Shown here: positions 8,834 through 37,211 of the stretch, piece by piece | Layout of the letters: each line of letters opens with the position of its first letter | Numbering within the stretch: position 1 is the stretch's first letter | Assembly: GCA_019243675.1 (NCBI GenBank) | Contig: JAFATZ010000239.1 | Location: 1-44,537, forward strand | Length of the DNA stretch: 44,537 nt | Direction of reading: 5' to 3' | Source: Ktedonobacteraceae bacterium | Lineage (GTDB): Bacteria > Chloroflexota > Ktedonobacteria > Ktedonobacterales > Ktedonobacteraceae | Position numbers and translations under genes: made by a program | The notes under the pieces: generated by a model | The model's database searches: none | Seen by the model: only the letters and a program-made list of their open reading frames with translations | What the model was told of the DNA's origin: nothing

Positions 8834-9505
8834 ATGAGTGATCTCTTTAGCAAAATTAGGCAAGCAACGGGCTTTGTCAATCAAAACGAGCTTTACAACC
8901 AAGCTTTCGAGAAAGGTGTCTTGCTAAAGAAGTTCTTTGATGCTGCGGGTATGTTTGAGAAAGCCGCCAAGAAATTCACTGAGAGCGGTGACCAGATGAT
9001 GGCAACGCAGGCTATGGCCAATAGCCTACTGTATCGTTATTTGGCAACGGGGGATGCCAGCACTATTTCGCCATTGCTCCAGAATTTGAGTAAATTACCA
9101 CAGATTGAAGTAATCTGCTCGCGAGAGATGATGCCTGTCGGCCCTCTCTGTGCTGAGTTGGATTGTCGCTTAGTTGAAGCTGCTCTCAGCCAAGCGCAAG
9201 ATGATCAGATCAGATCACGCGACCTGCACAAGCTTGCACGCGATAAGTTTCAAGCGATTAGCCGTAATCCTCTGATTACTTACAGTTATGTTCCAGCAGA
9301 AGATCAACATAACGATAGAGCAGAGCTGCGCTGTTTCTATCACGCTGGCATGTACTCCTTTTATGAGGCCATGACAAAGAAAGATAGTGACCCCTCTGCG
9401 GCATCAGACGATCTTTCACTGGCAAGACAAGCATTCCAACGCTGCAACGATCAACTCCAGATACAAAACGCATTACTGGGACTATTCTTCTGCTTGACAT
9501 GCTGA
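8834..9505 (+). CDS. Unknown helical protein (223 aa), first of a coupled pair
   Basis: ATG 8834 has an AAGGAG site eight bases upstream. The product is soluble and helical: segments such as AAGMFEKAAKKFTESGDQMMATQAMANSLLYR look like TPR or solenoid helices. The C-terminal part carries DLSLARQAFQRCNDQL and then a hydrophobic end (ALLGLFFCLTC). It overlaps the next ORF by seven bases. The downstream frame is open for some distance upstream of its ATG, so the two could be one protein broken by a frameshift near 9450-9505. I do not recognise the family. Its neighbour is an SPFH protein, suggesting a membrane-associated complex. Confidence 0.72.
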   Translation: MSDLFSKIRQATGFVNQNELYNQAFEKGVLLKKFFDAAGMFEKAAKKFTESGDQMMATQAMANSLLYRYLATGDASTISPLLQNLSKLPQIEVICSREMMPVGPLCAELDCRLVEAALSQAQDDQIRSRDLHKLARDKFQAISRNPLITYSYVPAEDQHNDRAELRCFYHAGMYSFYEAMTKKDSDPSAASDDLSLARQAFQRCNDQLQIQNALLGLFFCLTC

Positions 9506-12875: not shown

Positions 12876-15800
12876 ATGAAGGATGCATCCACTATGGCAA
12901 GTCAGCAGGATGGAGAGCAGGAACAGACACAACCTGCCAAGCACGAGTGTTTCCTGTGCCTACTTGATCCCGCTCGTCCCTGCTCGACACGCCAACTAGA
13001 AGGGCACATCGTGGCAGCATATGAACGTAGTATCAACGGGAAACCGCTACCGTTTATTCTGCTCAGGACGCCGCACTTTCTGGCCTCACTGGCCCTCACC
13101 GACTACTACCTCGGCTTTGTGCGTGATTTGTGTACTCGCGGTCCGATCATCAGAGAACTGGCACTGCGCGTCTACCATCTGCCGACCGAGCCAGAAATCC
13201 TAGAATACCAAGGCGAGCCACTTCACCGCTATACAGCGAACTCCTATACCTTAGCCGTGCTAGAGCCTGATATACTGCTCAATATCACAGACTTAGCCCA
13301 GGCTCACTATTGCTCACGGCAATACCTGCTCAATCGCCTTGTCTCCTCACCGCCTTCTGCAGCCACCATACGCGGCAATTTGGTGCATTACTGTTTCAAC
13401 GAACTGCTCAAGGCGCATGATAGAGATCATACGCTGGCAAGAAACGAGTTCAATAGCCTAGCGACGCCGCTCTCGCTGCTACACTCCTACCTGGAACAAG
13501 GATTACAGCAATACCAGCTTGAACTTGCACTGGCCAACGTGCCACTTGAGCAGATGCGTGCCGAGGTCGTGTCGCATCTGGAAAGCCTGGCGACGTGGTA
13601 CCAAAGCCAAAGTACAACGCTGTGGGATATGCCCAGTGCATATGTGAATGAGCAGGCTGCAGCACAACCACGCGAGGGCAATAGGGTACGTGCAGAGACG
13701 TTCTTACTAGCTCCTGAAATCGGGCTACGGGGACGCCTTGATCTGTTCTGGGAACAAGCGGGACAGCAGCGTCTACTCGAACTGAAGACAGGCGGTTCGA
13801 CGGGCGATCTACCCAAGCCCGACCATAGGCGACAGGTACACGGCTACCACGCACAATTGCTTGTACGGCATAATTCAACGCTGAAGAAGGCGCTGGCGAC
13901 CTTGCTGTATAGTGGGACACTCGGAGAGGCACAGGCTTACGGTATTAGCTTTACACTACGCGAACTGCAGCGCGTCAACGAGACGCGTAACATTCTTGCC
14001 CTCAGCCATGCAACAGGCATGCCGTCTGCTCCTCCTGCTCCGTCGCGCTGCCGTAAGTGTTCAATGCTCGCCCACTGTGCCCACATCTCCTCGCTACTCG
14101 GCTGGCAGCCACCTCAGACAGATGAGACACAAGACAGAGCGAACCCGTGCAGTGAGGATAGTGCATTTTTCGCTAAGTACTATTGGCTTTTGCATAGCGA
14201 GGGGCGCACGGGAGAGCAACAACTAGCCTTGCTCTGGAAGGAGAATGTAGAGCAGCGCAACGAGCGTGGTGTGATAATTGACGGTCTGGAGTTGGAGAAG
14301 ACGGAAGCAGCAGCGCAGGGTGACTGGCTACAGACGTTCCACTGTGTAAACAAGTCTGAACTGCGCAAGGGAGACGAAATTCTGTTGAGCGATGGTGATC
14401 CTATCACAGGACAGGTCGTGATCGGCACCATTGTCGCTATTAGCGCGCAGCAGGTCACCGTCTGGCTACCAGAACTGATTAGCAACCCGACGCTGCTTGA
14501 TCGCTACGATAATAACCTCGTACACGTGCGTACACTGCAAAATCTGCTGCGCTGGCTCGAACAAGCAGAGCCGCACCTGCGCGACTTGATAGCCGGACGT
14601 GTGCGACCGCGCTTTATCGGCGTAAATGTCCCACCACGTCCCGATTTCAACGCCGAACAAAATCTCGCCGTCGAGCGCGCACTGCAGATGCAAGATTACC
14701 TATTGATCCAAGGACCGCCAGGGACGGGCAAGACAAGCGTGATCGCCGAGATCGTGAAACGTCTAGTACAGCAGGGGCAACGCGTGCTGCTGGCGGCGTT
14801 TACCAATCAGGCGGTGGATAATGTGCTCAAGCGGCTCAGCGACAAAGAAGACTTCCACGATTACATTCGTCTCGGCCACAAGCGCAGCGTCGATGAGTCG
14901 GAGGCCGTACTGGGAAAACTTTTAAAGCAGCGCTTACAGACAGCACTGGAGGATCCGCCCCACACAGTGTACGATATACTCCTCCAGACACCAGTTATCG
15001 CCTCGACCACGGCAACCTGGTCATCCGACACCTATACACCCTCAAATGATCCAGCAGTTCAGTGGCCAGCATTGCATTTTGATGTTGCCATCATCGACGA
15101 GGCCAGCCAACTCACTGTTCCTAGCTTGCTTGGTGCGCTACGCTTCGTCAAACACTTCATCCTGGTTGGCGACGACAAGCAGCTCCCCCCGCTTGTGCTG
15201 AGCCAAGAGGCTGCTGCACAGGGTCTAGCCGACTCGCTCTTTAGCATCTTGAAGCGACTTGATGATGACTATATGCAAAGAAACGAGATGGTTATTGATG
15301 CCTGTGTCAATTTGGCCGTGCAGTACCGTATGAACCGCTGGATTTCACATTTCTCCTCCCAAGTCTTTTATGATGGGAAGTTGAAGGCTCATGAATCGGT
15401 AGCGCATAGATGCCTAGAATATGCGACGGACACGGTAGATCAGGGCACGATAAATCGTGCCCCTACGCCTTTATTTATCACCAGAAGCATTGACCCCACG
15501 CGCCCACTCGTCTTCCTGGATATACGTGCAGTACACGGAGTGGACGATGAAATGGCGAGCGAGCGAGCTAAGACGAGCGATGCAGAGGCGCGTGTAGTGT
15601 GTGCTATTGTGGAGGCATTGAGGACGCGAGGGATCGAGGAAGAAGAGATTGGCATTATTGCTCCCTATCGTGCCCAGGTGGCCAATATTCGCCATCACCT
15701 TTGCGCGATATATGGCGATGGGGCAGAAGGCGCGGTAAATCGGGGCACGATAAATCAGGGCGCGATAAATCGGGCCCCTACCGTTGATACGGTGGACCGC

Positions 15801-16037
15801 TTCCAGGGAGGAGAGCGCCTCGTTATCATCATGTCATTTGCTACCTCCGTTGAGCCGAGGCTTGGCAGTCAGCGCCGTGCGTTTCTCACCAATCCCAACC
15901 GTTTGAACGTTGCGCTCACACGTGCTCAGCGTAAGCTTATCCTGGTTGGGTGCATACACGCACTGGAGCACTTGCCCATCTTTGATCGCCTTATCACTTA
16001 CTGCCGTAGTATGGGAACTGTCATTAGCACAGAATGA
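12876..16037 (+). CDS. Cas4/RecB-type nuclease fused to superfamily 1 helicase (Dna2-like)
   Basis: The 1053-residue protein joins two modules. The N-terminal ~420 residues look like a PD-(D/E)XK nuclease with a 4Fe-4S cluster: a first Cys near 146 (YCSRQYLLNR), the catalytic LELKTGGS near 301, and CRKCSMLAHC near 391-400. The C-terminal half is an SF1B (Dna2/Upf1-type) helicase with Walker A QGPPGTGKTS near 612, IIDEASQL near 740, GDDKQLPPL, QYRMN and TVDRFQGGE near 973, then LNVALTRAQRKLILVG. It probably processes 5' DNA flaps or ends in repair. Two in-frame palindromic repeats interrupt the helicase at about residues 853-864 and 953-969, encoding GTINRAPT-like segments; the frame remains intact. 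Confidence 0.93.
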   Translation: MKDASTMASQQDGEQEQTQPAKHECFLCLLDPARPCSTRQLEGHIVAAYERSINGKPLPFILLRTPHFLASLALTDYYLGFVRDLCTRGPIIRELALRVYHLPTEPEILEYQGEPLHRYTANSYTLAVLEPDILLNITDLAQAHYCSRQYLLNRLVSSPPSAATIRGNLVHYCFNELLKAHDRDHTLARNEFNSLATPLSLLHSYLEQGLQQYQLELALANVPLEQMRAEVVSHLESLATWYQSQSTTLWDMPSAYVNEQAAAQPREGNRVRAETFLLAPEIGLRGRLDLFWEQAGQQRLLELKTGGSTGDLPKPDHRRQVHGYHAQLLVRHNSTLKKALATLLYSGTLGEAQAYGISFTLRELQRVNETRNILALSHATGMPSAPPAPSRCRKCSMLAHCAHISSLLGWQPPQTDETQDRANPCSEDSAFFAKYYWLLHSEGRTGEQQLALLWKENVEQRNERGVIIDGLELEKTEAAAQGDWLQTFHCVNKSELRKGDEILLSDGDPITGQVVIGTIVAISAQQVTVWLPELISNPTLLDRYDNNLVHVRTLQNLLRWLEQAEPHLRDLIAGRVRPRFIGVNVPPRPDFNAEQNLAVERALQMQDYLLIQGPPGTGKTSVIAEIVKRLVQQGQRVLLAAFTNQAVDNVLKRLSDKEDFHDYIRLGHKRSVDESEAVLGKLLKQRLQTALEDPPHTVYDILLQTPVIASTTATWSSDTYTPSNDPAVQWPALHFDVAIIDEASQLTVPSLLGALRFVKHFILVGDDKQLPPLVLSQEAAAQGLADSLFSILKRLDDDYMQRNEMVIDACVNLAVQYRMNRWISHFSSQVFYDGKLKAHESVAHRCLEYATDTVDQGTINRAPTPLFITRSIDPTRPLVFLDIRAVHGVDDEMASERAKTSDAEARVVCAIVEALRTRGIEEEEIGIIAPYRAQVANIRHHLCAIYGDGAEGAVNRGTINQGAINRAPTVDTVDRFQGGERLVIIMSFATSVEPRLGSQRRAFLTNPNRLNVALTRAQRKLILVGCIHALEHLPIFDRLITYCRSMGTVISTE
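15434..15466 (+). repeat. REP-like palindrome inside the helicase gene, copy 1
   Basis: The core GGGCACGATAAATCGTGCCC (15443-15462) is a perfect inverted repeat with nine-base arms, followed by CTAC. It is translated as part of a segment reading DQGTINRAPT with no counterpart expected in SF1 helicases. Similar units occur at 15734-15781 and 19895-19949. Confidence 0.85.
15734..15781 (+). repeat. REP-like palindrome inside the helicase gene, tandem copies
   Basis: Three GATAAATC/GGTAAATC-type cores alternate with GC-rich arms (GGGGCACGATAAATCAGGGC, then GCGATAAATCGGGCCCC), ending CTAC as in copy 1. Translated in frame as a repeated GTINQGAINRAPT segment, immediately before the conserved TVDRFQGGE helicase motif. 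Confidence 0.85.
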
Positions 16038-16779: not shown

Positions 16780-16850
16780 AAAACAAAAGAGCCTACTAAA
16801 ACGTAATAGTATGTAACAAAGCGTTTTAGTAGGTTCTTTTGTTTTTTTAC
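16780..16850 (+). terminator. Rho-independent terminator after rpsU
   Basis: Arms AAAACAAAAGAGCCTACTAA.. (16780-16803) and ..TTAGTAGGTTCTTTTGTTTT (16822-16845) pair with one wobble, and the stem runs into a T-rich end. Clear end of the zinc-ribbon/rpsU operon. Confidence 0.88.
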
Positions 16851-17929: not shown

Positions 17930-17933
17930 GTTC

Positions 17934-17989
17934 AAGAAGCAAGAAAAAATGTTCCCGATCATGATCGGGAACATTTTTTCTTGCTTCTT
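17934..17989. terminator. Bidirectional terminator: 56-bp perfect palindrome
   Basis: Each arm is 28 bases and pairs exactly, centred on GATCATGATC, with A and T runs in the arms (GAAAAAATG / CATTTTTTC). It sits five bases after the TPM gene stop and four bases after the atpC stop, so it ends transcription from both sides. Confidence 0.92.
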
Positions 17990-17993
17990 AAAG

Positions 17994-18461: not shown

Positions 18462-20838
<2,377 letters not shown>

Positions 20839-36950: not shown

Positions 36951-37148
36951 ATGGCAGCAGGTCGTTGTGACATTTGCGAACGTAAGCCAATGTACGGCAA
37001 TAACGTGCCCCACTCGCAGCATCGTACGCGTCGCCGCTTCGTATTAAATGTACAGCGTCGTCGCCTTGAAATTAATGGTGTTCCACGTACAGTGAATATC
37101 TGCACACGCTGTCTACGCACTATGATGAAGTTGCCAAAGGTGCGTTAA
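36951..37148 (+). CDS. rpmB: Large ribosomal subunit protein bL28
   Basis: A 65-residue basic protein: RCDICERKPMYGNNVPHSQH at the N-terminus, then RTRRRFVLNVQRRRLEINGV and ICTRCLRTMMKL. Two CxxC pairs (CDIC, CTRC) make it the zinc-binding form of bL28. AGGGAGGA precedes the ATG. Monocistronic, with its own promoter and a shared bidirectional terminator. Confidence 0.96.
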   Translation: MAAGRCDICERKPMYGNNVPHSQHRTRRRFVLNVQRRRLEINGVPRTVNICTRCLRTMMKLPKVR

Positions 37149-37211
37149 AGCTAGGCATAAAGCAAAAGGTTGCGGGCAATGCTCGCAACCTTTTGCTTTA
37201 TGCCTAGCTTT
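37147..37211. terminator. Bidirectional terminator between rpmB and rlmN
   Basis: Arms of about 27 bases (AAAGCTAGGCATAAAGCAAA.. / ..TTTGCTTTATGCCTAGCTTT) pair almost perfectly. The rlmN stop codon (37206-37204) is inside the right arm and the rpmB stop abuts the left arm. Confidence 0.9.

What the first reader, a model, noticed from the sequence alone, without database searches (positions are those of the whole stretch)
15434..15781. REP-like palindromes inserted in frame in a helicase gene
Units with a GATAAATC core and complementary GC-rich arms occur twice in the helicase coding sequence, the second as a tandem set just before the conserved TVDRFQGGE motif. They keep the frame and are translated as GTINRAPT/GAINRAPT. 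In-frame tolerance of a mobile palindrome inside a conserved enzyme is unusual (comparable to Rickettsia palindromic elements) and offers a natural source of new peptide segments.
Basis: partly seen in the sequence, partly recalled or inferred. Interest (0 to 1): 0.65.

Follow-up and report, generated by a model that had tools for sequence, protein, structure and literature searches.

The report
Mobile DNA palindromes inside a helicase
Two copies of a genome-wide family of tiny mobile palindromes (REP elements) lie in frame inside a bacterial DNA2-like repair enzyme and are translated as floppy loops; the case is real and well supported, but this kind of insertion was already described in other bacteria.

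Summary
On the minus strand the units read GTAGGGGC-C/A-CGATTTATCG-C/T-GCCC: a GTAG foot plus an imperfect palindrome, the anatomy of GTAG-type REP elements. The window's 3.27 Mb draft genome (Ktedonobacteraceae, Chloroflexota) holds 67 copies and its only congener 52; the reversed-pattern control holds none. The gene is a complete DNA2-type nuclease-helicase. REP-derived DNA encodes 13 residues at 15429-15467 and 18 at 15729-15782. Both sites carry the REP in the congener; site 2 there is 30 bp (two 15-bp half-units) shorter. Orthologues from other genera have unrelated sequence of similar length at both places, so the REPs occupy hypervariable loops. AlphaFold predicts both segments as disordered within a well-folded enzyme. 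About ten other proteins of this genome, including PEP carboxylase, MurF and PriA, carry in-frame REPs, and in 20 of 33 informative cases GTAG supplies a gene's TAG stop. No REP transposase (RAYT) was found in either genome; relatives have full-length RAYT genes flanked by GTAGGGG repeats. Intragenic GTAG-REPs in repair genes and REP-supplied stops were described in 2013 (PMC3733652). Verdict: new member of a known kind.

The parts
12876..16037 (+). DNA2-like nuclease-helicase gene (1053 aa): PD-(D/E)XK nuclease with Cys cluster, SF1B helicase
   Evidence: Pfam Dna2, PDDEXK_1, AAA_11, AAA_12; full-length match to DNA2 5eaw, E 2.5e-53; Foldseek top hits 5ean/5eaw/5eax, E 2e-58 to 3e-57; dN/dS 0.13 outside the REP segments
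15429..15467 (-). Site 1: REP-derived segment, 39 bp, encoding DTVDQGTINRAPT (residues 852-864)
   Evidence: degenerate half-unit at 15-bp spacing; congener has it, other genera do not; pLDDT below 50 at residues 854-860
15443..15466 (-). REP unit GTAGGGGCACGATTTATCGTGCCC (perfect palindrome variant)
   Evidence: hairpin -9.7 kcal/mol, z -5.9
15729..15782 (-). Site 2: REP-derived segment, 54 bp, encoding GAVNRGTINQGAINRAPT (residues 952-969), a unit plus two 15-bp half-unit repeats
   Evidence: (30 bp longer than congener); pLDDT below 50 at residues 947-965
15758..15781 (-). REP unit GTAGGGGCCCGATTTATCGCGCCC
19895..19948 (.). Further REP pair in inverted orientation between atpG and atpD (same family); supplies the TGA stop of atpG
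   Evidence: fold z -5.3

Best explanation
A GTAG-tagged REP family, of the kind thought to be mobilised by RAYT (Y1 HUH) transposases, spread in the ancestor of this Ktedonobacteraceae genus. Copies landed in two hypervariable, probably exposed loops of the RecA2 domain of a DNA2-like nuclease-helicase. In the minus orientation and one particular frame the element has no stop codon and is read as G-T/A-I-N-R-A-P-T. Because the loops tolerate varied sequence, the insertions survived in frame, were trimmed or partly replaced the old loop, and then changed length by gain or loss of 15-bp half-units (five codons), which keeps the frame. The peptides are most likely neutral passengers. Shown: family membership by anatomy and copy number, in-frame reading, congener-only distribution, loop position and predicted disorder, the 30-bp (two half-unit) in-frame difference, and REP-flanked RAYTs in relatives. 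Inferred: transposition by RAYT, later loss of RAYT from the genus, slippage as the expansion mechanism, and neutrality.
For: 67 copies in G000 and 52 in G001, control 0; related GTAGGGGC palindromes in other genera of the family and order. RAYT genes with the HUH motif (DHVHG) flanked by GTAGGGG repeats in family members G019, G015 and (motif DHIHF) G014; G019 carries GTAGGGGTGCAATTCATTGCGCCC, close to the GTAGGGGCCCAATTCATTGTGCCC variant of G000. Orthologue alignment: REP peptides only in the genus, in variable loops. Site 2 differs by 30 bp, two half-units; half-unit spacing in coding copies is 15 or 18 bp (6 of 6) against 13-18 elsewhere (6 of 13 multiples of three). AlphaFold (mean pLDDT 81.8): low-confidence segments 854-860 and 947-965 coincide with the inserts. 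Codon changes: 1 synonymous and 5 non-synonymous in 21 aligned REP codons against 207 and 108 elsewhere, Fisher p = 0.02. Other in-frame REPs in PEPC, MurF, PriA, PurL-type proteins, PKS and a NACHT-HEAT protein; in MurF the REP peptide aligns as an insertion against a solved homologue.
Against: No empty orthologous site of the same gene is at hand: the only congener is occupied at both sites, so insertion is inferred from other genera at about 60% identity, where loop lengths are similar. No intact RAYT in either genus genome. Disorder in a model built on 31 sequences is partly expected for any genus-specific loop. The codon test rests on 6 changed codons. Both genomes are drafts.
Confidence: 0.86

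Rival explanations
1. Retained function: the REP is kept in the gene because its DNA or RNA hairpin does something (gyrase or RAYT binding, mRNA folding, translation pausing), and the peptide is incidental.
For: REP codons changed mostly at non-synonymous positions while only one synonymous change is seen, as if DNA were conserved; a few shared sites elsewhere show paired changes in the stem, e.g. GTAGGGGTATGATTTACCATACCC opposite GTAGGGGCCCGATTTATCGTGCCC.
Against: Across shared sites, stem changes are mostly breaking (18 broken, 10 wobble, 5 compensated); site 2 in tandem form folds poorly (z -1.8).
Confidence: 0.12
2. Ancient loop peptides that resemble a REP by chance or by low-complexity evolution.
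For: Loops of similar length exist at both places in other genera.
Against: 24-bp near-exact matches to a 67-copy family at both sites; no GxINRxPT peptide outside the genus; GTAG foot present.
Confidence: 0.02
3. Adaptive exaptation: the REP-encoded pentapeptide repeats give the enzyme a new interaction surface or regulate helicase activity.
For: Site 2 lies directly before helicase motif V (VDTVDRFQGGE) and changes length between species.
Against: Peptide sequence and length differ between two close species; predicted disorder; same peptides occur in unrelated enzymes.
Confidence: 0.05
4. A variant of the best explanation: local copying rather than two independent transpositions. One copy arrived and the second arose from it, or was homogenised with it, by short-range conversion or duplication.
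For: In G001 both copies of the gene carry the same variant GTAGGGGTCCGATTTATCGCGCCC, which no other listed copy of that genome has.
Against: In G000 the two copies differ at two positions; the flanks of the two sites are unrelated.
Confidence: 0.3

Closest known systems
GTAG-tagged REP families and intragenic REPs (Di Nocera, De Gregorio and Rocco 2013, PMC3733652)
   Same: GTAG foot, short GC-rich imperfect palindrome, dispersed copies, inverted dimers; copies in frame inside genes, many of them replication/repair genes including UvrD/REP helicase; GTAG termini giving TAG stop codons; Chloroflexi are among the phyla reported.
   Different: Ktedonobacter is not named in the main text; a DNA2-like gene and 15-bp half-unit tandem tails that expand in frame were not seen in the parts I read; RAYT not found in this genus.
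Rickettsia palindromic elements (RPE), inserted in frame in ORFs (as summarised in PMC3733652)
   Same: Palindromic repeat tolerated in frame in proteins that are probably functional.
   Different: RPEs of R. conorii carry CGTC, not GTAG, at one end; [quoted passage not shown]
REPINs / REP-RAYT systems (PMC2817692, PMC3116915, PMC8266576; titles and abstracts only)
   Same: REP with GTAG associated with a Y1 HUH transposase whose gene is flanked by REPs; such genes exist in relatives.
   Different: Mostly extragenic; in this genus the RAYT is missing or unassembled.
Eukaryotic DNA2 nuclease-helicase (PDB 5eaw)
   Same: Same domain order and fold over residues 123-1042.
   Different: The bacterial enzyme carries REP-encoded loops in RecA2.

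Membership tests
GTAG-type REP element | Tetranucleotide GTAG (or near variant) at one foot of the hairpin | tested here: met
   Both helicase copies and nearly all of the 67 copies start GTAG; note that GTAG was part of the search pattern, with two mismatches allowed
GTAG-type REP element | Short (20-40 bp) imperfect palindrome able to form a hairpin | tested here: met
   24-bp unit, 7-9 bp stem, consensus C-T mismatch
GTAG-type REP element | Many dispersed copies per genome, often as inverted dimers | tested here: met
   67 and 52 copies in two draft genomes, pairs at 19895-19948, L082, L090
GTAG-type REP element | Located next to 3' ends of genes, often giving the TAG stop | tested here: met
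   20 of 33 copies entered by a long upstream frame have it stopped by GTAG, 11 expected if frames were equal
GTAG-type REP element | Cognate RAYT gene flanked by REPs in the same genome | tested here: inconclusive
   NF047646: no match in G000 (83% complete) or G001 (99% complete); REP-flanked RAYTs exist in other genera of the family. Both are draft assemblies, and PMC3733652 notes that REPtrons may be missing from REP-bearing species
GTAG-type REP element | Mobilisation by RAYT | not testable with these tools
   Needs an experiment; presence/absence differences between sister species were seen
Rickettsia palindromic element (RPE) | In-frame insertion in protein genes | tested here: met
Rickettsia palindromic element (RPE) | CGTC terminal tag (R. 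conorii families) | tested here: not met
   GTAG instead; tag definition from PMC3733652
DNA2-type nuclease-helicase | PD-(D/E)XK nuclease with Cys cluster followed by SF1B helicase, homologous over full length | tested here: met
   (invariant C146, C392, C395, C401)

The most novel reading that the evidence does not exclude
After the REP transposase was lost from the genus, the intragenic REPs kept evolving without it: 15-bp half-units expand and contract in frame and copies within one gene are homogenised, so a dead REP family acts as a standing generator of pentapeptide-repeat loops in housekeeping and repair enzymes.
Probability: 0.15. Interest if true: 0.55.

Novelty: new member of a known kind. 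Interest (0 to 1): 0.36.

Why it matters
It extends intragenic GTAG-REPs to a Ktedonobacteraceae genus with congener and outgroup comparisons, and shows a frame-preserving growth mode (15-bp half-units). With about ten REP-carrying proteins and a congener for comparison, the system would allow a direct test of whether REP-encoded peptides are neutral loops or become functional, and of how REPs behave once their transposase is gone.

Tried and rejected
Selection for the hairpin: tested by counting stem changes at shared sites; mostly decay, so rejected as a general rule. A RAYT in the genome: the PF01797 hits in G000 (33 positions) and G001 (42 positions) read as C-terminal remnants of IS200/IS605 TnpA near TnpB pieces, not RAYT. 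A pre-existing GTAG as insertion target: the few empty sites (L074 near 2572, the REP at the end of the 252-aa gene of L094, the L009 cluster) do not show a consistent target; left open. N-terminal 'intragenic' REPs (rplV, ftsZ, dak2, an SDR) were discarded because an ATG follows the REP and the domain starts after it. A GTAG-hairpin scan around Y1_Tnp (IS200-like) loci of relatives found nothing useful; the RAYT-specific model was needed.

Full report
Observation. The ORF 12876-16037 is open for 1053 codons and contains three exact GATAAATC cores at 15449, 15749 and 15764. Read on the minus strand, the units are GTAGGGGCACGATTTATCGTGCCC (15443-15466) and GTAGGGGCCCGATTTATCGCGCCC (15758-15781). 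The window is contig C444 of a 3.27 Mb draft genome of 475 contigs, 83% complete; with up to two mismatches the pattern GTAGGGGCNCGATTTATCGNGCCC occurs 67 times there and its reversed control never. A congener (G001, 99% complete; also found as Ktedonobacteraceae bacterium isolate CP_BM_RX_R7_7) has 52 copies. Variant forms occur in other genera of the family and order. This is a dispersed repeat family, not chance.

What the host gene is. Pfam finds Dna2, PD-(D/E)XK and AAA_11/AAA_12 domains. The protein matches DNA2 (PDB 5eaw) over residues 123-1042 with E 2.5e-53, and the predicted structure has DNA2 structures as its best matches. Between the two congeners the gene is under purifying selection, dN/dS 0.13 outside the REP segments (the segment limits used there were one residue off at site 1, corrected).

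Orthologues. The congener carries a REP at both sites, GAINRTPT at each; site 2 is 30 bp shorter than in the window. Orthologues from other genera of the family and from other families of the order lack the peptide and have unrelated residues of comparable loop length. Exact GATAAATC/GATTTATC cores are not found at these positions outside the genus. Insertion therefore most likely predates the split of the two species, and the REP DNA stands in for former loop sequence rather than simply adding to it.

Extent and growth. Many REPs are followed by degenerate copies of their 3' half, (C)GATTTATCGTGCCC. In coding copies of G000 the spacing is 15 or 18 bp in six of six cases; in the rest it is 13-18 bp with six of thirteen multiples of three; shuffled tails almost never show a half-unit (4 of 1520). 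With these, site 1 encodes DTVDQGTINRAPT and site 2 GAVNRGTINQGAINRAPT. The PriA copy also differs between the species by 15 bp. The frame is thus preserved by the unit length itself plus selection; slippage is the likely but unproven mechanism.

Structure and constraint. An AlphaFold model from 31 orthologues (mean pLDDT 81.8, pTM 0.85) has six low-confidence segments of three or more residues; two of them, 854-860 and 947-965, are the REP-encoded loops. In 21 aligned REP codons there are 1 synonymous and 5 non-synonymous codon differences against 207 and 108 elsewhere (Fisher p = 0.02; 3 of 962 windows of the rest of the gene are as extreme). The numbers are small, but they fit unconstrained peptides.

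Other genes. Long ORFs with internal in-frame REPs include PEP carboxylase, MurF, PriA, two PurL-type proteins, a polyketide synthase, a radical SAM protein, a PMT-type membrane protein and a NACHT-HEAT protein. In MurF the REP peptide aligns as an insertion against a solved homologue; for PEP carboxylase the alignment around the REP is loose, and for PriA the REP lies outside the aligned stretches. Several N-terminal cases are annotation artefacts, with the true ATG after the REP. Two of the six reading frames through the element are closed; one of these is the xxG-TAG frame. In 20 of 33 cases where a long upstream frame runs into the REP, the GTAG provides the stop codon.

Transposase. The RAYT model NF047646 finds nothing in G000 or G001 but finds full-length RAYTs in relatives. 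Those in G019, G015 and G014 are flanked by GTAGGGG repeats, and one in G019, GTAGGGGTGCAATTCATTGCGCCC, closely matches a REP variant of G000. The Y1_Tnp fragments in the two genus genomes look like IS200/IS605 remnants. Loss of RAYT is plausible but both genomes are drafts.

Known precedents. Di Nocera et al. 2013 (PMC3733652) describe 24 GTAG-REP families, Chloroflexi included, REPs inside genes with many in DNA replication and repair, GTAG supplying TAG stops, and the parallel with Rickettsia RPEs. The present case is a new member of that kind. What I did not find described there is the 15-bp half-unit tail and its in-frame length change, and a DNA2-like host gene; only the sections cited were read, and the supplementary list of intragenic REPs could not be consulted.

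Limits. One congener only; no empty orthologous site of this gene; draft genomes; small counts for the codon test; RAYT-driven movement and neutrality are inferred.

Noticed in passing
window 19895-19948: Inverted pair of the same REP family between atpG and atpD; its GCATGATAAATC provides the TGA stop of atpG, and the 498-aa GTG-started atpD ORF starts inside or next to the REP, so the true start is probably the ATG (ATGGCAACAAAC) downstream.
   Followed up: partly
L033 (G001) 1100-1123 and 1385-1408: The two REPs of the congener's helicase gene are the identical variant GTAGGGGTCCGATTTATCGCGCCC, not seen in other listed copies of that genome, suggesting local conversion or copying between sites about 290 bp apart.
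   Followed up: partly
L067 (PEP carboxylase, REP at 2949 of the reversed locus) against L219: At the orthologous in-gene site the congener has GTGAGAGCATGATTTCTCACACCC: 10 of 24 bases differ, yet it still contains the palindrome GTGAGA/TCTCAC.
   Followed up: partly
L009 (contig C272 near 9172-9276): Cluster of three REPs in direct and inverted orientation, one repeated with its flank (CATCCCATTAACACGTAGGGG...), absent from the congener, where one copy of the flank sequence remains.
   Followed up: partly
window 37147-37211, 17931-17992, 16780-16845: Long, near-perfect inverted repeats (24-32 nt arms) between genes, perhaps transcription terminators; unrelated to the REP family.
   Followed up: no
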